A DNA stretch of 44,092 nucleotides. Origin: an uncultured Pseudobutyrivibrio sp. GTDB taxonomy: Bacteria > Bacillota > Clostridia > Lachnospirales > Lachnospiraceae. This document shows positions 2,884-36,475 of the stretch, piece after piece (the first letter of the stretch is position 1; the number at the start of each line of letters is the position of its first letter). The position numbers were made by a program, and so were the translations under genes. The stretch is from assembly GCA_945946605.1 (NCBI GenBank), contig CAMEWP010000003.1:1-44092 (forward strand). The letters run 5' to 3'. The notes under the pieces are model-generated. The model had not been told where the DNA came from, searched no databases, and worked only from the letters and a program-made list of their open reading frames with translations.

Positions 2884-4407
2884 ATGGGTAACGAAAAAAA
2901 GGCTGATATCTTAAATGCCAGCGAAAGAGACGGCGTACAATATCGTAAAGCCCCGATTTGGCAGATGATCATCGGTATGGCAAACAACGGAACCGGCGTT
3001 GCGTTTTATCTGTTGATGGGCTTTGCCAGCATGATCGCAGGACAGGGCTACGGAATCATCGCAGCAGTGGCAGGTGTACTTTTGACATGCATGCGTATTT
3101 TTGACGGTGTGACAGATACGCTCATCGCAGCAGCATTTGAGAAGTTCAATCCTAAGAAGGGCAAGATCCGTATCTTCATGATTCTAGGTTGGGCACTTTG
3201 TATTTTAGGAAGTTTTATGCTGTACAGTTGGTGTACCGGTAAGGCAGATGGTATTGCAGGTGTCCTGTTATTCCTGTTCTGCTACTTCCTGTTCATCATG
3301 GGTTACACCATCAATGGTGTTGCCGGCGGTACCGTTGGTATCGTTATGGTAAATGATCCTACCCAGCGTCCTATGATGGGTGTTATTGGAACCGCATATT
3401 CCTACCTGGTTCCCCTGATCTTTACCAATATCAGTACATTCGTAATTTTGCCGAAATATGATTATCAGTTCAATTCTGCAATGTTTGCAGAGATGGTTAC
3501 CTGGTATGCAGGCTTTACCCTGTTATTCACCATTCTGGCATGTATCGGTGTCAGCAAGGTGGATATAAGAGAGACATTTGAGACTGTAACAAAAGATGGT
3601 AAGAAGTCTGAGGAGAAGACAAGCGTAAAGGATATGCTTGCAGTATTAAAGGATAACAAGAATGTTCAGATGTACCTTCTGACAGGTGTTTCCGATAAAC
3701 TGGCACAGACTGTTTCCGGCCAGGGCGTTATCTCTAACCTGCTGGGCGGTGTTTTGATCGGAAGTTATGCAGCAACCACTATGGCAGGTAACTTCTCCCA
3801 GATCATCGGTATCGTATTTGCATTTGGTTCCGGTATCTTTATCGCAAAGTGGGGCGCAAAGAAATCCACAACTGTTTGGTCCTGGATCAATATCATCCTG
3901 GCTGTAGCAATGGTAGGATTCTTCCTGCTCATCGGCGGTGTGGACGGTATGCCGAAACTTGGTAACATGGGAAGCATTCTGTTTGTGATCAATGTGGTAA
4001 TGAGTATTGCCCGTACCGGTGCTAGCATGGCACTGACCACCACCGGTTCTGCCATGAGAGCTGATATCGTAGACTACGAGTATGAGAGATCCGGAAAGTA
4101 TATGCCGGCCGTTGTAGCTGGTGTATACTCCCTCATCGATAAGTTCGTATCCTCCTTTGGTATCACCATTGCAATGCTTTGCCTGAGCTTTGTAGGATAT
4201 GCAGGAACCAAGGTTCCCCAGATGGGTGATGAGGCTACCTGGCCTAAGTTCTGGATGTGTATGTTCCTGATGGTCGGTCTGCCTATCATTGGATGGCTCT
4301 GCAATATCATTGCCATGAAGTTCTATGATCTGAGCAAAGAACGTATGGTTGAGGTTCAGAAGAACCTGAAAGAAAGAAAGGATGCTGCTGAGGCACAGGC
4401 AGAGTAA
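2884..4407 (+). CDS. GPH-family (MelB-like) sugar:cation symporter
   Basis: The product is an integral membrane glycoside transporter of the glycoside-pentoside-hexuronide family, within the major facilitator superfamily, that couples sugar uptake to Na+ or H+. It is 507 aa with about 12 hydrophobic segments, begins MGNEKKADILNASERDGVQYRKAP, and has a charged loop after the first few helices (FDGVTDTLIAA, the family's conserved Asp region). The start was chosen at ATG 2884 because GGAGG sits 8 bases upstream. The gene follows the GH78 rhamnosidase in the same orientation and is closed by a terminator at 4441, so the pair probably forms a rhamnoside import and cleavage unit. The substrate is inferred from this neighbour only. 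Confidence 0.9.
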   Translation: MGNEKKADILNASERDGVQYRKAPIWQMIIGMANNGTGVAFYLLMGFASMIAGQGYGIIAAVAGVLLTCMRIFDGVTDTLIAAAFEKFNPKKGKIRIFMILGWALCILGSFMLYSWCTGKADGIAGVLLFLFCYFLFIMGYTINGVAGGTVGIVMVNDPTQRPMMGVIGTAYSYLVPLIFTNISTFVILPKYDYQFNSAMFAEMVTWYAGFTLLFTILACIGVSKVDIRETFETVTKDGKKSEEKTSVKDMLAVLKDNKNVQMYLLTGVSDKLAQTVSGQGVISNLLGGVLIGSYAATTMAGNFSQIIGIVFAFGSGIFIAKWGAKKSTTVWSWINIILAVAMVGFFLLIGGVDGMPKLGNMGSILFVINVVMSIARTGASMALTTTGSAMRADIVDYEYERSGKYMPAVVAGVYSLIDKFVSSFGITIAMLCLSFVGYAGTKVPQMGDEATWPKFWMCMFLMVGLPIIGWLCNIIAMKFYDLSKERMVEVQKNLKERKDAAEAQAE

Positions 4408-4440
4408 TTTCTGAGAGATTTTTAACAAAAACACAAATTG

Positions 4441-4483
4441 GCCGTCGGATATCCGGATATTACGGGTTCCGGCGGCTGTTTTT
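4441..4483 (+). terminator. Rho-independent terminator after the symporter gene
   Basis: GCCGTCGGA (4441-4449) pairs with TCCGGCGGC (4468-4476), with one G-U pair, followed by TGTTTTTG. It separates the sugar genes from tyrS. Confidence 0.85.
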
Positions 4484-4485
4484 GC

Positions 4486-4515
4486 TTGACAAATCCTTTA
4501 TACCCCCACTATAAT
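4486..4515 (+). promoter_or_regulatory. Sigma-A promoter of tyrS
   Basis: TTGACA (4486-4491) and TATAAT (4510-4515), both perfect consensus, are separated by 18 bases. Transcription should start near 4522, leaving a leader of only about 65 bases before tyrS. Confidence 0.9.
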
Positions 4516-4533
4516 AAGCAGTAAGACTTGTCC

Positions 4534-4568
4534 TTTATCTTCTGAGAGCAGAGGATAAGGGATTTTTT
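4534..4568 (+). terminator. Terminator-like hairpin in the tyrS leader
   Basis: TCCTTTATC pairs with GATAAGGGA (nine pairs, one G-U) and is followed at once by TTTTTT. It lies between the start of transcription and the ribosome binding site of tyrS, so it looks like an attenuator. No T-box specifier domain or T-box sequence fits in the short leader. Confidence 0.65.
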
Positions 4569-4587
4569 GTGTGCAGGAGGAACAGTG

Positions 4588-5808
4588 ATGACAGTTTATG
4601 ATGAACTGGTTGCCAGAGGCCTGATCGCCCAGGTGACAGATGAAGAAGAGATTAAAGATATGATCAATAACGGTAAGGCTGTATTCTACATTGGATTTGA
4701 TCCCACAGCGGACAGCCTTCATGTAGGACATTTTATGGCGCTTTGCCTGATGAAGCGTCTGCAGATGGCAGGCAATAAGCCGGTGGCGCTGATCGGCGGC
4801 GGTACTGCCATGATTGGAGATCCCTCCGGCCGTACCGACATGCGTCAGATGATGACCAAGGAGACCATTGCCCATAATGTAGAGTGCTTTAAGAAACAGA
4901 TGAGCCGTTTTATCGATTTTTCCGATGATAAGGCTATTCTGGTCAACAACGCAGACTGGTTGCTGGATCTGAATTATGTGGATGTGCTGCGGGAGGTAGG
5001 CCCTCATTTTTCCGTTAACAGAATGCTGACAGCAGAGTGCTACAAGCAGAGAATGGAGCGGGGACTGAGTTTCCTGGAGTTCAACTACATGATCATGCAG
5101 AGTTACGATTTTTATATGCTGTATCAGAAGTACGGCTGTAATATGCAGTTCGGCGGAGATGATCAGTGGAGCAACATGCTGGGCGGTACAGAATTGATCC
5201 GTCGGAAGCTTGGCAAGGATGCATATGCCATGACCATTAATCTTCTGCTGAATTCCGAAGGCAAGAAGATGGGCAAGACCCAGTCCGGTGCAGTATGGCT
5301 GGATCCTAATAAGACATCACCCTTTGAGTTCTATCAGTACTGGCGCAATGTATCTGATGCAGATGTGCTGAAGTGTCTGAAGATGCTGACCTTCCTTCCC
5401 TTGGAGGAGATCAATGCCATGGAGAGCTGGGAAGGCAGCCAGTTAAATGAGGCAAAGAATATCCTTGCCTTCGAACTTACCAAGCTGGTGCATGGTGAAG
5501 AGGAAGCCCAGAAGGCGAAAGAGGCATCCCTTGCGCTGTTTTCCACCGGTTCTGCAGCAAATATGCCTACAGAACAGATCACAGATAAAGATTTCCGTGA
5601 GGGACAGATCGATATCCTTCAGCTTCTGGTAAGCGCAGGACTTACTGCTTCCAGATCTGAGGCGAGACGGGCTGTTGAGCAGGGCGGCGTTACCGTAAAC
5701 GGAGAAAAGGTAACGGACATTCACACGGTTTATGGTGTGGATGCATTTGCAGAGGAGTTTGTACTGAAGAAGGGCAAAAAGAAATTCTGTAAGATCGAGT
5801 ACAAATAA
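4588..5808 (+). CDS. tyrS: Tyrosyl-tRNA synthetase
   Basis: This cytoplasmic class I aminoacyl-tRNA synthetase charges tRNA-Tyr with tyrosine using ATP. The product is 406 aa, normal for bacterial TyrRS. The HIGH-type motif is HVGH at 45-48 (after FDPTADSL). The KMSKS-type motif is KMGKT around 227-231, as in the TyrS class. A C-terminal S4 RNA-binding domain occupies about 340-400 ([19 protein letters not shown]). The track start at 4567 is a TTG; ATG 4588 with AGGAGG seven bases upstream is the true start. The PAP2 phosphatase gene follows after 12 bases and is probably co-transcribed. Confidence 0.98.
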
Positions 5809-5820
5809 AGGAGAAGATTT

Positions 5821-6369
5821 ATGGCGTGGGAATTTGATGTGCTGTACTGGTTTCAGGAACTGCATCAGCCGGTACTGGATAAGATCGTTGTAGCAGTGAC
5901 AACACTGGGGAACAGCGGCATTTTCTGGATCATTTTGACGGTATTGATGCTGATCTTCTGTAAGGATAAAAAGCCGGCCTGGACATCGGCTGTGGCGCTG
6001 ATCCTGTCACTTCTGGTCTGCAATATCCTGCTGAAGAATACGGTGGCTAGGGAGCGCCCCTGCTGGATAGATCCAAGTGTGGAGATGCTTGTGAAAGTGC
6101 CCAGGGATTATTCTTTCCCTTCCGGTCATTCCTCAGCATCCTTTGCATCAGCAGTGTCTGTTTTTCTGTATTACAGGAAACCCGGTATTGCTGCCCTGAT
6201 CCTGGCAGGCTGCATCGCCCTTTCCCGGCTGTATCTGTTTGTGCATTTCCCTACGGATGTGCTGGCAGGCACGCTGCTTGGCATTCTGGAGGCAGTTGCG
6301 GCATATTATATTGTAAAATATATCTCCGGCATCCGGAAGAAGGGTCACCCGGAAGTCAACGCAAAATAA
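5821..6369 (+). CDS. PAP2-family membrane phosphatase (possible undecaprenyl-diphosphatase)
   Basis: The product is a 182-aa membrane protein with about five hydrophobic segments and all three PAP2 signature motifs: KNTVARERP, PSGHSS and SRLYLFVHFPTD. The histidines in the last two are the catalytic nucleophile and acid of the family. Proteins of this size (BcrC type) often recycle undecaprenyl pyrophosphate for cell wall synthesis, with the active site outside the membrane, but other lipid phosphates are possible. AAGGAGA lies just before ATG 5821, 12 bases after tyrS. Confidence 0.9.
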   Translation: MAWEFDVLYWFQELHQPVLDKIVVAVTTLGNSGIFWIILTVLMLIFCKDKKPAWTSAVALILSLLVCNILLKNTVARERPCWIDPSVEMLVKVPRDYSFPSGHSSASFASAVSVFLYYRKPGIAALILAGCIALSRLYLFVHFPTDVLAGTLLGILEAVAAYYIVKYISGIRKKGHPEVNAK

Positions 6370-6404
6370 AGCAAAATGAACTGCCGTGATTGCGAAATAA
6401 AAAG

Positions 6405-6433
6405 TTGACAGAAATTGGGATATCAAGTATAAT
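6405..6433 (+). promoter_or_regulatory. Sigma-A promoter of the Mn2+ riboswitch and mntP
   Basis: TTGACA (6405-6410) and TATAAT (6428-6433), both perfect, are 17 bases apart. Transcription should begin near 6440, right at the 5' edge of the riboswitch. Confidence 0.9.
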
Positions 6434-6439
6434 TCGTTT

Positions 6440-6570
6440 AGTTATCCGTGAGGGAGTAGCGAGCATGTAGATGCGATTTGTCAACAGACCGGCATACAGA
6501 TGCCTGGCAAATCTTAAAATGTGAGACTCATGTATACACTTTGGGAGAAGTGTATATATGGGTCTTTTTT
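6440..6570 (+). ncRNA. yybP-ykoY (Mn2+-sensing) riboswitch
   Basis: The leader begins with GAGGGAGTAGCGA, the conserved core of the yybP-ykoY class, and contains the later TCAACAGACCGGCA segment. It ends in an expression-platform hairpin. It lies between a consensus promoter and mntP, the gene this class most often controls. Known members turn expression on when Mn2+ is high. The assignment rests on motif recognition and context, not on a covariance search. Confidence 0.82.
6523..6570 (+). terminator. Expression-platform terminator of the Mn2+ riboswitch
   Basis: GAGACTCAT plus ATACACTT pair with AAGTGTAT plus ATGGGTCTT to form a long hairpin followed by TTTTTT. Mn2+ binding would favour the alternative, anti-terminated fold. 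The ORF-track start of mntP at 6521 lies inside this hairpin and is not the real start. Confidence 0.8.
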
Positions 6571-6625
6571 GTACATGAAAATAAAAGGTGTCAGTTTCAG
6601 GGCACGAAAGAAAAGGAGTAAAAAA

Positions 6626-7198
6626 ATGGGAGTTGTTGAATTACTTTTGATGGGTGTGGGTCTGGCCATGGACGCTTTTGCGGTATCCATATGCAAGGGC
6701 CTGGCCATGCGCAAGGTAAACAAGAAACAGTGCTTTGTGATCGCTCTGTTTTTCGGAGGATTTCAGGCATTGATGCCGCTGATCGGATGGTTTTTGGGAA
6801 GCCAGTTTGCAGACAGTATCTCTTCCGTGGATCACTGGATCGCCTTTATCCTTCTGGCATACATCGGAGGAAAGATGATCTATGAGGCAGTGAAGGAAAA
6901 GGACGAGACGGTGGAGATTGACCAGATGGATCCGCCACTGGATCTGAAAGAACTGCTGGTGCTTGCTGTTGCCACCAGTATTGATGCTTTGGCGGTAGGT
7001 ATCACCTTATCTTTCCTGGAGGTGAATATCATAGAAGCCATCAGTATCATTGGAGTAGTTACTTTTATTATTTCGGCAGCAGGTGTATTTGTGGGTAATA
7101 TTTTTGGAAACAAATACAAGTCCAAGGCAGAGTTTGCAGGAGGTCTGATCCTGGTGATCCTTGGCATCAAGATTTTGCTGGAACATGTGATGGGGTAA
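6626..7198 (+). CDS. mntP: Manganese efflux pump MntP
   Basis: This membrane exporter protects the cell from excess Mn2+. The product is 190 aa with six hydrophobic segments and an internal duplication typical of MntP (YebN): MGVGLAMDAFAVSICKG in the first half and AVATSIDALAVGITLSF in the second, each with the conserved membrane aspartate. Start ATG 6626 has AAAGGAG seven bases upstream; the longer track ORF begins inside the riboswitch terminator. The Mn2+ riboswitch directly upstream supports the substrate. A CaCA-type exchanger follows 47 bases downstream. Confidence 0.93.
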   Translation: MGVVELLLMGVGLAMDAFAVSICKGLAMRKVNKKQCFVIALFFGGFQALMPLIGWFLGSQFADSISSVDHWIAFILLAYIGGKMIYEAVKEKDETVEIDQMDPPLDLKELLVLAVATSIDALAVGITLSFLEVNIIEAISIIGVVTFIISAAGVFVGNIFGNKYKSKAEFAGGLILVILGIKILLEHVMG

Positions 7199-7245
7199 TG
7201 ATTGATCATATCAGTATCAAATAAAAAAGAAGGAGAGGAAAGATT

Positions 7246-8214
7246 ATGTTAGTACCTGTATTGTTGTTTATTGTGGGCCTGGTGTGTCTGGTAAAAGGCG
7301 GAGACTGGTTTGTGGATGGAGCAACGGCCATTGCAAGAAAATTCCATCTGCCGGAGCTTCTGATCGGTGCAACTGTGGTGTCCATCGGAACTACACTGCC
7401 GGAGGTTATGGTATCAGCCACCTCTGCTGTCAGCGGACATGGTGAGATTGCTTACGGAAATGCCATTGGATCCATTATCTGTAACACGGCACTGATCGCT
7501 GCCATCACCGTGGCTGTCCGCCCCGGTGCAGTCAATAAAAAGGCGCTGCGGATCCCGGTAGCATTTTTCTTTACAGCAGCGGTGATCTATGCAGTTGTGG
7601 CATACGGATTTGGCTATTTCAGCCGCCCGGTGGGATTTATCATGCTGGCTATTTTTGTGATCTACATGATTGTGACAGTTAGACAGATGAAGAAATCCCC
7701 GGATGAAGTGGAAGTGGAAGAAGTAGAGGAGCAGGAGGAGATGAGCGTTGGCAAAATGATCCTGCTGTTGGTGGCAGGTGCAGCTATCATTGCTGTTGGT
7801 GCCAACCTTCTGGTGGATAACGGAACACTGATCGCACAGGCATTAGGCGTTCCGGAGTCTGTGATCGCGCTGACCTTCGTAGCATTGGGAACTTCCCTTC
7901 CGGAGCTGGTAACAGCCATCACCTCCCTGATCAAGGGCCATGGTTCCCTGTCTCTGGGCAATGTTATCGGTGCCAATATTTTCAATCTGGTACTGGTAAG
8001 CGGCGTGTCAGTTACCCTGTCCCCCTTTGCGGTTCCCCAGAGTGCAACCCTTTTCGGACAAAATGCATCCCTGGTGCTTGAAATTCCGGTGATGTTTTTT
8101 GTGATGCTGTTCCTTACCATTCCTGCGTTGATCCGGGGCAAATTATCCCGGGCTCAGGGTATTGTGCTGCTGGGTGTTTATGCAGCCTTTGTGGTGATCC
8201 AGTTTATGCTGTAA
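7246..8214 (+). CDS. CaCA-family calcium/sodium exchanger (YrbG-like)
   Basis: The product is a 322-aa membrane antiporter of the Ca2+/cation antiporter superfamily. It has ten or so hydrophobic segments and two inverted alpha-repeats: GATVVSIGTTLPEVMVSATS and LTFVALGTSLPELVTAITS, each followed by a GN(A/V)IG(S/A)NI block that forms the ion site. An acidic loop (about residues 147-167) separates the halves. AGGAGA precedes ATG 7246. It sits 47 bases after mntP with no terminator between them and ends at the strong terminator at 8266, so it should share the Mn2+ riboswitch. It may therefore export Mn2+ or exchange Ca2+ under Mn2+ stress; the ion is not shown by sequence alone. Confidence 0.88.
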   Translation: MLVPVLLFIVGLVCLVKGGDWFVDGATAIARKFHLPELLIGATVVSIGTTLPEVMVSATSAVSGHGEIAYGNAIGSIICNTALIAAITVAVRPGAVNKKALRIPVAFFFTAAVIYAVVAYGFGYFSRPVGFIMLAIFVIYMIVTVRQMKKSPDEVEVEEVEEQEEMSVGKMILLLVAGAAIIAVGANLLVDNGTLIAQALGVPESVIALTFVALGTSLPELVTAITSLIKGHGSLSLGNVIGANIFNLVLVSGVSVTLSPFAVPQSATLFGQNASLVLEIPVMFFVMLFLTIPALIRGKLSRAQGIVLLGVYAAFVVIQFML

Positions 8215-33637: not shown

Positions 33638-34795
33638 ATGGCACTTATAAAATGTCCAGAATGTGAGCAAACTATTTCAGACAAGGCTTCAAAATGTCCC
33701 AAATGTGGATATCCGATACAAGAGTATTTGGGCGGAAAAACAGAAGAAAGTCAAACAGAAAATTTTAATGATGCTTCAGTAAATACTGTAAACTCTGCGG
33801 ATATTCAGCAAGATTCAACGCAAAAGAAAAGTAAGAAAAAAACCGTTATTACATTACTTGCTGTTTGCGTAGTTGTTGTGGCAGCATTGAGCGTTGTTTT
33901 GGGTTCAAGTTTGTTTACGCCCAAACTAACCGTTAAAGATATTACCATTAGTAAATGGCGTTTAACTGATTCGACGAAGTATTTTGATTACTACGAAGGT
34001 ACAATCATTTCCAAACAGAAGAAGCCGTTTGTTGCTGTTATCGGGCGATATGAGGATGAAGGAAGCACACCGGAATTTGTTTATGTGGAAGACGGCAAAG
34101 GAATAATGGAAACATACGAAGTTTCAGACAAAGACCCGTCAGTCAAATATAGACCGATTGGTTATTTGGGCGGAACTTTAGTTGATATTTCCGATATAAA
34201 AGTTAAGTACACGGATAGCGATTATGACGATTATTCATATTCTCAAAAAACAAGTTGTGATGTTTTGATTGATTTAGATATGAACAATTCAAAAAACGGA
34301 TTGCTCGTATTTGATATTATTAACGAAACAAATAACGAAACAGAAAGAAATATGATTGCCGTAGTGATTGACGGTAAAGCGGAATATAGTTATAACGCAA
34401 ATTTGCCGTATAAAGCGCGAGGCATTGATGTTTCGATTGAACCCAAAATGTTCTGTGAAAGCGATGATGTTACACAAGAAGATTATGTAGTAGAGAAAAA
34501 ATATACTGCAAAAAAGAGCGAGGAAAAATATTTTACGATCTATTCTGGCGAGGAAATATTATCTTTTGCTGATTATGCTGATGGATTTGTGCTCTATACA
34601 GAAGAACTCAAAGAGGGCGGCAATAAAAAAGATAGAAATGTTGTAAGTAATTCAAGTGTATTCCTGCATGATGGCGAATGCACTTTGAAAACCTACGATT
34701 CTGTTGACGCAGATGAAACTATTTTAAAGCCAAAATACAAATTTAAGATCATTGGTTACATTACATGGACACCATTGGAAAAGGAGACGATTTAA
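33638..34795 (+). CDS. Zinc-ribbon membrane protein of the accessory island
   Basis: The product is 385 aa: an N-terminal zinc ribbon (IKCPECEQTISDKASKCPKCGYPI, residues 4-27), a polar linker, one transmembrane helix at about 68-90 (TVITLLAVCVVVVAALSVVLG), and a large extracytoplasmic part, mostly beta, without recognised family. Base use is clearly more AT-rich than in the flanking genes, with many AAA, ATT and TTT codons, which points to horizontal acquisition. AGAGAGG is upstream of ATG 33638. A second gene of similar layout overlaps functionally one base after its stop. Role unknown. Confidence 0.78.
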   Translation: MALIKCPECEQTISDKASKCPKCGYPIQEYLGGKTEESQTENFNDASVNTVNSADIQQDSTQKKSKKKTVITLLAVCVVVVAALSVVLGSSLFTPKLTVKDITISKWRLTDSTKYFDYYEGTIISKQKKPFVAVIGRYEDEGSTPEFVYVEDGKGIMETYEVSDKDPSVKYRPIGYLGGTLVDISDIKVKYTDSDYDDYSYSQKTSCDVLIDLDMNNSKNGLLVFDIINETNNETERNMIAVVIDGKAEYSYNANLPYKARGIDVSIEPKMFCESDDVTQEDYVVEKKYTAKKSEEKYFTIYSGEEILSFADYADGFVLYTEELKEGGNKKDRNVVSNSSVFLHDGECTLKTYDSVDADETILKPKYKFKIIGYITWTPLEKETI

Positions 34796-34796
34796 G

Positions 34797-35273
34797 ATGA
34801 ATGAATTGAAATGTAAAGAATGTGGAGCAGCACTTGTACAGGGAGCAACGGAGTGTCCGTCTTGCGGATGTCCGATTGAAGAAGTAAAAATTGAATGTGC
34901 AGCACCGACTAAAACACAGACTGCAAAGAAAAAAGTTAATGTGATATCCATTCTTCCTTTGCTTTTGGGTATTGTGATTATCGTTATGGGTATTACAGTA
35001 ATGAACAAGGGAGTCAGCATTGATACATATAGCGCAAAACACTATGATGCTGATTATGCAGCATTCGGCGGCGACTTCTGCACGGAAATTTATGGAGTTA
35101 CTGATATGATTGTTGATGAACTAAATGATATAAATAGCGGTGTTGAGGTGTTGTCCGAGTCTATGGCAACTATGGCAAGTGTCATATACTATTCTACGGG
35201 AATGATAATTATTGCACTTGGTCTTGGCGTGGTAGCAGTATCTTGTAACCACATAAAAAAAGAAAATGCATAA
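34797..35273 (+). CDS. Zinc-ribbon protein with two membrane helices
   Basis: The product is 158 aa: zinc ribbon (LKCKECGAALVQGATECPSCGCPI, residues 4-27), transmembrane helix about 48-68 (ISILPLLLGIVIIVMGITVM), a short external loop, and a second helix near 125-150. ATG 34797 with AAGGAG upstream replaces the track start at 34752. The gene starts one base after the preceding stop. The shared zinc ribbon and AT-rich composition suggest both proteins came together. Role unknown. Confidence 0.78.
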   Translation: MNELKCKECGAALVQGATECPSCGCPIEEVKIECAAPTKTQTAKKKVNVISILPLLLGIVIIVMGITVMNKGVSIDTYSAKHYDADYAAFGGDFCTEIYGVTDMIVDELNDINSGVEVLSESMATMASVIYYSTGMIIIALGLGVVAVSCNHIKKENA

Positions 35274-35337: not shown

Positions 35338-35499
35338 GCATTTCTCTTTGCCTTGTTTCCACCTTACCGCATCTTCCGAGGAGCGTTTTCTGGTAATCTG
35401 ATTTTGGATTATGATTTTCAATCAGAAGAATTCCATAGATGAGAGGATTTTTGGAGGACGTTTGGAGGGATTCTTGATGGATTCGATTTAGGAGGAGAT

Positions 35500-35660
35500 T
35501 ACCTACGGAAATTTTCTGATGGCTGAATGGTAGGTATAATTTTCAAAAATAGATGATGACATACCTATCAAATAATCAAACCGCAAAAACAGTAGGTAGA
35601 AAACAGGAAAAGGGCAAAAGTATTACCTGCTGCGCACCGGATAAAGCAAACAAGTAGGTA
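35500..35660. repeat. Array of alternating 7-bp sites with 62-bp period
   Basis: TACCTAC (35500), GTAGGTA (35530), TACCTAT (35562), GTAGGTA (35592), TACCTGC (35624) and GTAGGTA (35654) form three units. Within each unit the two inverted sites are separated by exactly 23 bases; between units by exactly 25. The spacers are unrelated to each other. Spacing of 30 and 32 bases between successive sites is about three turns of the helix. Confidence 0.75.
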
Positions 35661-35728
35661 ACCAATGGAAAGTGTGAGTATTTCGGCCATGCTGGGAAGA
35701 ATGCTGGCCCAAACCCTATATACAAAAA

Positions 35729-35756
35729 GTTCGTGCATCGCATTTGATGCACGAAC
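35729..35756. repeat. Perfect 11-bp hairpin near the IS-like end
   Basis: GTTCGTGCATC (35729-35739) and GATGCACGAAC (35746-35756) are perfect inverted copies with a 6-base loop. It directly precedes the IS200/IS605-like sequence and may be part of its end structure. Confidence 0.6.
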
Positions 35757-35815
35757 GTAACTGTTTTACGGACACCGCCCTAAAGGTAGGGGGCTTCTTC
35801 ATCCCCTGGCTTCAA
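35757..35815 (+). mobile_element. Candidate IS200/IS605 right-end remnant (omega-RNA scaffold-like)
   Basis: The segment TACGGACACCGCCCTAAAGG followed by TAGGGGGCTTCTTCATCC resembles the terminal hairpin region found after tnpB genes in IS200/IS605 elements, where it is also the 3' part of the TnpB guide RNA, ending at a TCAA-type site (CTTCAAG). No tnpA or tnpB is present in the window. This is pattern recognition only. Confidence 0.4.
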
Positions 35816-35887: not shown

Positions 35888-36475
35888 TTAGCCGAAGTAT
35901 CTCTCCAGCAGGCCCTTCAGAGCTTTGCCGTGTCTAGCTTCGTCACGAGCCATCTCGTGTACAGTGTCATGGATAGCATCCAGGTTGTTCTTCTTAGCGC
36001 AAGCAGCAAGATCAAACTTACCAGCGGTAGCACCGAACTCGCAGTCAACTCTCCAAGCCAGGTTATCCTTGGTAGTAGCCTTCATGTTGGGCTCAAGATC
36101 CTCTCCTAACAGTTCTGCAAACTTGGAAGCATGCTCAGCCTCTTCGTAAGCTGCCTTCTCCCAGTACAGGCCGATCTCCGGATATCCTTCACGATGAGCG
36201 ATACGAGCCATGCACAGATACATTCCAACCTCAGAGCACTCACCATCGAAGTTAGCTTTTAACTGATCGAAGATGTACTTCTTATCTTCCTCGCTGATGT
36301 CCGGGTTGTTCTTAACAGTCTTAGCGTAGATGCCATACTCATGCTCTGCAGCCAGCTTCAGCTCGCCTTCTACCTTCTTAAACTTATCAGCGCCTACATG
36401 ACATACGGGGCACTCTGCGGGAGCAGCATCTCCTTCATAAACATAACCACATACAGTACATACAAATTTTGCCAT
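35888..36475 (-). CDS. Rubrerythrin (rubredoxin domain at the N-terminus)
   Basis: This cytoplasmic diiron peroxidase reduces hydrogen peroxide with electrons from NAD(P)H via rubredoxin, protecting anaerobes. The product is 195 aa. Domain order is reversed compared with classic rubrerythrin: rubredoxin first (C6, C9, C22, C25 in [20 protein letters not shown]), then the four-helix diiron domain with E-x-x-x-H type ligands ([29 protein letters not shown]). An AAAAGGAG site precedes the start. It is transcribed from its own promoter downstream of the PerR-like gene and ends at a strong terminator. Confidence 0.96.

What the first reader, a model, noticed from the sequence alone, without database searches (positions are those of the whole stretch)
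35500..35660. Three-unit array of alternating 7-bp sites with an exact 62-bp period and unrelated spacers
TACCT(A/G)(C/T) at 35500, 35562 and 35624, and GTAGGTA at 35530, 35592 and 35654, each recur exactly every 62 bases. Within a unit the inverted pair is always 23 bases apart, and 25 bases separate units. The spacers do not match one another, so the geometry and not the sequence is conserved. The 30/32-base step puts sites on one helical face (about three turns). That suits a wrapping or co-operative protein: a transposase or integrase arm, a partition or replication protein, or a repressor. RNA hairpins in series are the other reading. It sits in an AT-rich island beside an IS-like end.
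Basis: seen in the sequence. Interest (0 to 1): 0.75.

Follow-up and report, generated by a model that had tools for sequence, protein, structure and literature searches.

The report
Phased repeat arrays with orphan nuclease-like gene
The three-unit array is one of about eleven copies in this genome of a dispersed DNA element, and in many other bacteria arrays of the same design, spaced by whole turns of the DNA helix, sit beside an unnamed nuclease-like gene whose versions each appear to have their own site sequence.

Summary
The array is exact and not chance. It is one of about 11 dispersed, homologous ~225-bp copies in this genome; arms are 96% identical, spacers 75%, flanks 53-61%.

A scan of GTDB species genomes found the same geometry at 57 loci, mostly rumen Lachnospiraceae and Fibrobacter. 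Beside these arrays lies a recurrent ~260-aa orphan protein with no convincing Pfam or NCBIfam match and a predicted PD-(D/E)XK-like fold. Twenty of 26 array-bearing genomes encode it, against 26 of 98 relatives.

Searching from the protein, 15 of 30 unselected loci carry an alternating inverted array, mostly just upstream, against 1 of 59 control loci. Arm sequences differ between paralogs and are mostly shared by close relatives. Periods fall at about 53, 63, 73.5 and 84 bp: 5, 6, 7 and 8 helical turns. This argues for double-stranded DNA bound by a phased protein and against RNA hairpins.

A predicted arm (AACATCG) occurs at 56 units in the genome that carries its paralog and 0-1 in 26 others. 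A second arm was confined to its own gene.

Best reading: cognate binding arrays of an undescribed nuclease-like protein, in some genomes spread like REP/RAYT elements. The gene is missing from this incomplete assembly. Binding, cleavage and mobility are inferred.

The parts
35500..35536 (+). Unit 1: TACCTAC-N23-GTAGGTA
   Evidence: Exact match; homologous in 10 aligned copies
35562..35598 (+). Unit 2: TACCTAT-N23-GTAGGTA; left arm TACCTAT in all 10 aligned copies
35624..35660 (+). Unit 3: TACCTGC-N23-GTAGGTA
35479..35704 (.). Core of the dispersed element (~225 bp) shared by most copies in this genome; the array plus flanks
   Evidence: Own-genome DNA search: array-containing matches on contigs C8, C10, C22, C60, C76, C91, C106 (two) and C121 besides the window copy, spanning roughly query 210-435
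35705..35785 (.). Further 3' homology, shared with the C121 copy only
   Evidence: C121 match covers query 174-516
34752..35273 (+). Left neighbour: zinc-ribbon protein gene, pointing toward the array (not part of the element)
35888..36475 (-). Right neighbour: rubrerythrin-like gene (family named from sequence, not from a family scan), pointing toward the array, so the array sits in a convergent intergenic region

Best explanation
The array is a set of double-stranded DNA binding sites, alternating in orientation and spaced by whole helical turns, for a cognate orphan protein of ~250-300 aa. That protein has a helical-hairpin-plus-three-strand N-terminal domain and a PD-(D/E)XK-like C-terminal domain. 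Shown by computation: arrays of this design lie next to this protein family (mostly within 600 bp upstream), differ in arm between paralogs, agree within most close clades, and have periods near 5-8 helical turns; dispersed arrays are homologous copies in the window's genome, with arms under the strongest constraint. Inferred: the protein binds the arms through its N-terminal domain as a phased multimer; it has or had nuclease activity that contributes to copying arrays to new intergenic places, so the gene-plus-array acts like a REPtron and dispersed arrays are its non-autonomous offspring; and in this genome the gene is lost or lies in the unassembled part.
For: Dispersed copies in the own genome. 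Same geometry at 57 loci. Most frequent ORF cluster beside arrays is this protein, 9 loci. 20/26 array genomes encode it against 26/98 relatives, Fisher p 5e-6. Arrays at 15/30 unselected protein loci against 1/29 rubrerythrin loci, 0/30 Transposase_31 loci and 0/60 shuffles, p 5e-8. Upstream 34/60, downstream 6/60. Period clustering: R=0.83 at 10.5 bp, n=36; excluding the 62-bp class Rayleigh p 2e-6. Arm shared in most close protein clades: TACCTAY, TACCGC, TACGTA, TACGGTT, GGCAAG. Prospective test: AACATCG units 56 in G111, 0-1 in 26 other genomes. AlphaFold model pLDDT 93 with a helix-strand order fitting PD-(D/E)XK, and invariant S-K-x-E, D-F, H and G with near-invariant E in the E-H-x-G motif.
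Against: No homolog in the window's own assembly (78% complete) or its one congener. Four other genomes with the geometry lack the protein: L. mucosae, Nostocoides, Intrasporangium, and a Pseudomonas whose repeat looks like a classical REP. One arm tested prospectively (G045) was found only in its cis array, so dispersal is not universal. Two close paralogs in G111 carry different arms. About half of unselected protein loci show no array by this strict detector. Foldseek hits are mostly nucleases at the top but none is significant (best E 0.049). The canonical ExK lysine is replaced (E-H-x-G), so catalysis is unproven. No insertion junction or empty site was shown.
Confidence: 0.6

Rival explanations
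1. The array is mainly an operator: the protein represses or controls its own gene from the upstream array, and dispersed arrays are decayed duplicates or extra regulated sites.
For: Arrays lie upstream of the gene far more than downstream, and in G045 the arm occurs only in cis. Helical phasing suits co-operative repression.
Against: Dispersed copies often sit at gene ends rather than promoters: 12 of 39 arrays between convergent genes against 31 of 167 background gaps, and only 4 of 39 between divergent genes (counts exclude arrays at locus edges). G111 has 56 units at 17 or more places. A nuclease-like domain is unexpected in a simple repressor.
Confidence: 0.25
2. RNA hairpins in series: each unit is a 7-bp stem with a 23-nt loop in a transcript, for example a guide or processed RNA array.
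For: Arms are complementary, and the variants of units 2 and 3 in the window are G-U compatible on the + strand; 16 G-U against 1 A-C in own copies, though these are shared by descent.
Against: Periods cluster near multiples of 10.5 bp. Among protein-linked arrays, mismatches that are neither G-U nor A-C (63) outnumber G-U (31). The window folds no better than shuffles on the + strand (z -1.0). No Rfam family reached its gathering score.
Confidence: 0.07
3. A host nucleoid, partition or repair protein uses these arrays, and the nuclease-like gene is only a passenger that tends to insert beside them.
For: Some genomes have the geometry and no detectable gene; arrays are intergenic.
Against: Different paralogs within one genome have different arms, and arm similarity follows the protein tree in most close clades; the G111 test fits a paralog-specific arm.
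Confidence: 0.08

Closest known systems
REP/BIME elements with RAYT (TnpA-REP), 'REPtrons'
   Same: Chromosomal gene with repeats beside it and, in some genomes, dispersed intergenic repeats in alternating orientation, with a repeat type specific to the gene; apparent non-autonomous repeats where the gene is lost
   Different: The protein is not an HUH/Y1 transposase; REPs are GTAG-tagged palindromes recognised as single-stranded stem-loops (PMC8266576), whereas here the site is a short arm of paralog-specific sequence repeated at whole helical turns
PDC-S68/S69 candidate defence proteins (PADLOC) and helicases with the same C-terminal domain
   Same: C-terminal ~110 aa domain matches (E down to 1e-30); plasmid hits, where annotated, lie in genes called AAA ATPase, RecD-like or RecQ helicase
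   Different: PDC-S68 models are 1200 residues or more with the domain at the end; here it is fused to a small N-terminal domain and tied to an array
TIGR-Tas
   Same: Single gene beside an array with alternating repeats and variable spacers
   Different: Tas proteins have a Nop domain and RNA guides of 36 nt (PMC12045711); no Nop domain here, and the period is set by DNA helical turns
Rpn/Transposase_31 (YhgA-like) PD-(D/E)XK proteins
   Same: Multi-copy nuclease-fold chromosomal genes; one lies next to a second array type in this genome (contig C57)
   Different: 0 of 30 Transposase_31-like loci carry arrays by the same detector

Membership tests
REP/RAYT (REPtron) | HUH Y1 transposase gene | tested here: not met
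   Array-linked protein has no Y1_Tnp match in Pfam and a predicted PD-(D/E)XK-like fold
REP/RAYT (REPtron) | GTAG-tagged imperfect palindrome of 20-40 bp forming a stem-loop | tested here: not met
   Sites are 6-9 bp arms of many different sequences with roughly 14-50 bp between arms
REP/RAYT (REPtron) | Dispersed intergenic repeats sharing the type flanking the gene | tested here: inconclusive
   Met in G111; not met in G045, where only the cis array exists
PD-(D/E)XK nuclease superfamily | alpha-beta-beta-beta-alpha-beta core with acidic active-site residues | tested here: inconclusive
   Model order fits; invariant S-K-x-E and D-F, near-invariant E in E-H-x-G; top Foldseek hits include XisH, EXO5, MunI, BamHI and TnsA but none significant
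PD-(D/E)XK nuclease superfamily | ExK catalytic motif | tested here: not met
   E-H-x-G in place of ExK
PD-(D/E)XK nuclease superfamily | DNA cleavage activity | not testable with these tools
   Needs biochemistry
TIGR-Tas | Nop domain protein | tested here: not met
   52 members scanned against Pfam, no Nop match
Known RNA family | Match above an Rfam gathering score | tested here: not met
   Best 23.2 bits against a cutoff of 40
Insertion sequence / MITE of a known transposase | Terminal inverted repeats and target duplication of a known family | not tested
   No empty site or junction comparison was made; copies have ragged ends

The most novel reading that the evidence does not exclude
A previously undescribed class of chromosomal element in at least Bacillota and Fibrobacterota: a PD-(D/E)XK-like protein that recognises its own paralog-specific site only when several copies are laid out at whole helical turns, and that copies such arrays around the genome, with protein and site co-diverging so that one genome can hold several independent systems.
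Probability: 0.4. Interest if true: 0.9.

Novelty: categorically new. Interest (0 to 1): 0.8.

Why it matters
If right, it adds a second, unrelated kind of gene-plus-dispersed-repeat system to REP/RAYT and explains a body of phased repeats in rumen and gut bacteria. It also gives a function to test for an uncurated, multi-copy protein family. The natural set of paralogs with different sites and with 5-, 6-, 7- and 8-turn spacings is a ready-made series for studying how a protein reads both a sequence and a helical phase, and how DNA specificity diverges after duplication.

Tried and rejected
Rfam search of the region: nothing above gathering score. RNA folding: no better than shuffles on + (z -1.0), weak on - (z -2.0). 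Viral-contig scan for the array: none; the protein's C-terminal domain in viral contigs matched over residues 114-257 at most. Plasmids: only partial matches, in genes annotated as ATPases or helicases where annotated; phages: two unannotated records, one a full-length 37% match. Strict pattern in 98 relatives: own genome only. Transposase_31 (Rpn-like) as the array partner: 0/30 loci. DUF559 as the partner in Nostocoides, Intrasporangium and L. mucosae: present but without arrays beside it. Pfam scan of genes beside L. mucosae and actinobacterial arrays: no shared candidate. G-U wobble counting: not decisive because units are related by descent. N-terminal domain fold search: only insignificant prefoldin-like hits. 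PMC searches found no description of such arrays with a PD-(D/E)XK gene; subscription papers and most preprints are not in that library, so prior description is not excluded.

Full report
The observation. Shuffled and simulated windows never produce such an array. The region is not notably AT-rich.

The element in its own genome. The window is contig C3 of a 1.89-Mb assembly, 78% complete. The unit pattern recurs 36 times forward against 1 for the reversed control, at loci on C8, C10, C22, C60, C76, C91, C106 and C121. A DNA search gives about 11 copies homologous over roughly 225 bp (window 35479-35704), with ragged ends. In the alignment of 10 copies, arms are 95.7% identical, spacers 74.7%, flanks 53-61%; none of 500 column permutations reached that arm-spacer difference. 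So the arrays were copied as units, and the arms are the part held constant. The window copy sits between two converging genes.

Elsewhere. An exact scan for two consecutive units in GTDB species genomes gave 57 stretches, by my estimate against about one expected by chance. Most are rumen or gut Lachnospiraceae and Fibrobacter; others are L. mucosae, two actinobacteria and a Pseudomonas whose repeat resembles a classical REP. Arms differ by genome (TACCTAC, TACCTAT, TACCTCG, TACCTCC), with both arms usually changing together.

The associated gene. Clustering ORFs around the arrays gave one dominant family, at 9 loci in Lachnospiraceae, a Clostridiales MAG and Fibrobacter. It is 250-300 aa, with no convincing Pfam or NCBIfam match. 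Its last ~110 aa match candidate defence proteins PDC-S68/S69 in PADLOC and, in plasmids, genes annotated as ATPases or helicases. An AlphaFold model of one member has mean pLDDT 93: helix, three strands and a long helix, then an alpha-beta3-alpha-beta fold. Structure matches are mostly PD-(D/E)XK enzymes at the top of the list but none is significant. Across 52 members S149, K150, E152, D186, F187, H202 and G204 are invariant, with E201 above 90%.

Tests of the association. Twenty of 26 array-bearing genomes encode the protein, against 26 of 98 relatives; Fisher p 5e-6. Two of the remaining six keep only fragments of it. Going the other way, I searched from the protein in the 98 relatives and looked for any alternating inverted array, whatever its sequence: 15 of 30 loci, against 1 of 29 rubrerythrin loci, 0 of 60 shuffles and 0 of 30 Transposase_31-like loci; p 5e-8. 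In protein loci from array-bearing genomes it was 24 of 30. Arrays lie within 600 bp upstream in 34 of 60 loci and downstream in 6.

Geometry. The arrays found from the protein have mean periods of 51.5-54.5, 60-64.5, 73-74 and 82-84 bp. The resultant length at 10.5 bp is 0.83 (n=36), and without the 62-bp class the Rayleigh p is 2e-6. Whole helical turns are what double-stranded DNA bound on one face predicts; an RNA reading predicts no such clustering.

Specificity. Each protein's array has its own arm, and most close relatives share it: TACCTAY, TACCGC, TACGTA, TACGGTT, GGCAAG. An exception is a close pair of paralogs in G111 with different arms (AACATCG and ATGGAACG). A prospective test used AACATCG from the paralog in G111: 56 units there, on many contigs, and 0-1 in 26 other genomes. 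A second test, TAATCGT in G045, found six units, all in the cis array, with only one-mismatch background hits in other genomes. So the arm belongs to its genome in both cases, but dispersal does not always occur.

Mechanism. I consider site binding by the cognate protein likely, and REP-like dispersal the best account of the multi-copy cases. Autoregulation is the strongest rival and could be the original role. Binding, cleavage and transposition were not observed. In the window's genome the gene was not found by two profiles; with 22% missing and arrays at contig ends (C49, C57, C106), absence and non-assembly cannot be told apart.

Open points. L. mucosae, Nostocoides and Intrasporangium have the geometry without a detectable homolog, which may mean gene loss, a too-distant protein or a different partner. 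Literature was searched only in an open-access library.

Novelty. By the tests run here it is not a REPtron or a TIGR system, nor a known RNA family; membership in a known IS or MITE family was not tested. I call it categorically new as a gene-array pairing, with the reservation that its function is inferred and prior description outside the searched library is possible.

Noticed in passing
L024:4730-5282 (contig C49) and L025:1-400 (contig C57): A second, GC-richer array type in the window's genome (TACCTACC ... GGTA-type arms, 63-bp steps, ~199-bp super-period), near a marR-family gene and a Transposase_31 gene; both contigs end inside the array.
   Followed up: partly
L056, L069, L089, L090, L096, L097: Limosilactobacillus mucosae DSM 13345 carries at least six dispersed two-unit TACCTAC arrays but no detectable homolog of the nuclease-like protein.
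   Followed up: partly
L062, L064, L084, L088, L092, L109, L111: Nostocoides japonicum and Intrasporangium chromatireducens carry TACCTCG/CGAGGTA arrays with 62-63-bp periods and no homolog found; partner unknown.
   Followed up: partly
L058, second half (about 3700-7400): A further alternating array with a TAACTG/ACTGCA-type arm in the same genome as TACCTACa arrays, suggesting several systems per genome.
   Followed up: no
L087:1798-2643 (same gene as in L125), L202, L203: Frameshifted or fragmentary copies of the nuclease-like gene in genomes that still hold arrays, consistent with gene decay after array spread.
   Followed up: partly
L095:1327-1425: The Pseudomonas sp. CM27 hit resembles a classical Pseudomonas REP (TGTGGGAGCTGGCTTGCCGGCGATA, recognised from memory) whose flanks happen to give the TACCT/AGGTA spacing.
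   Followed up: no
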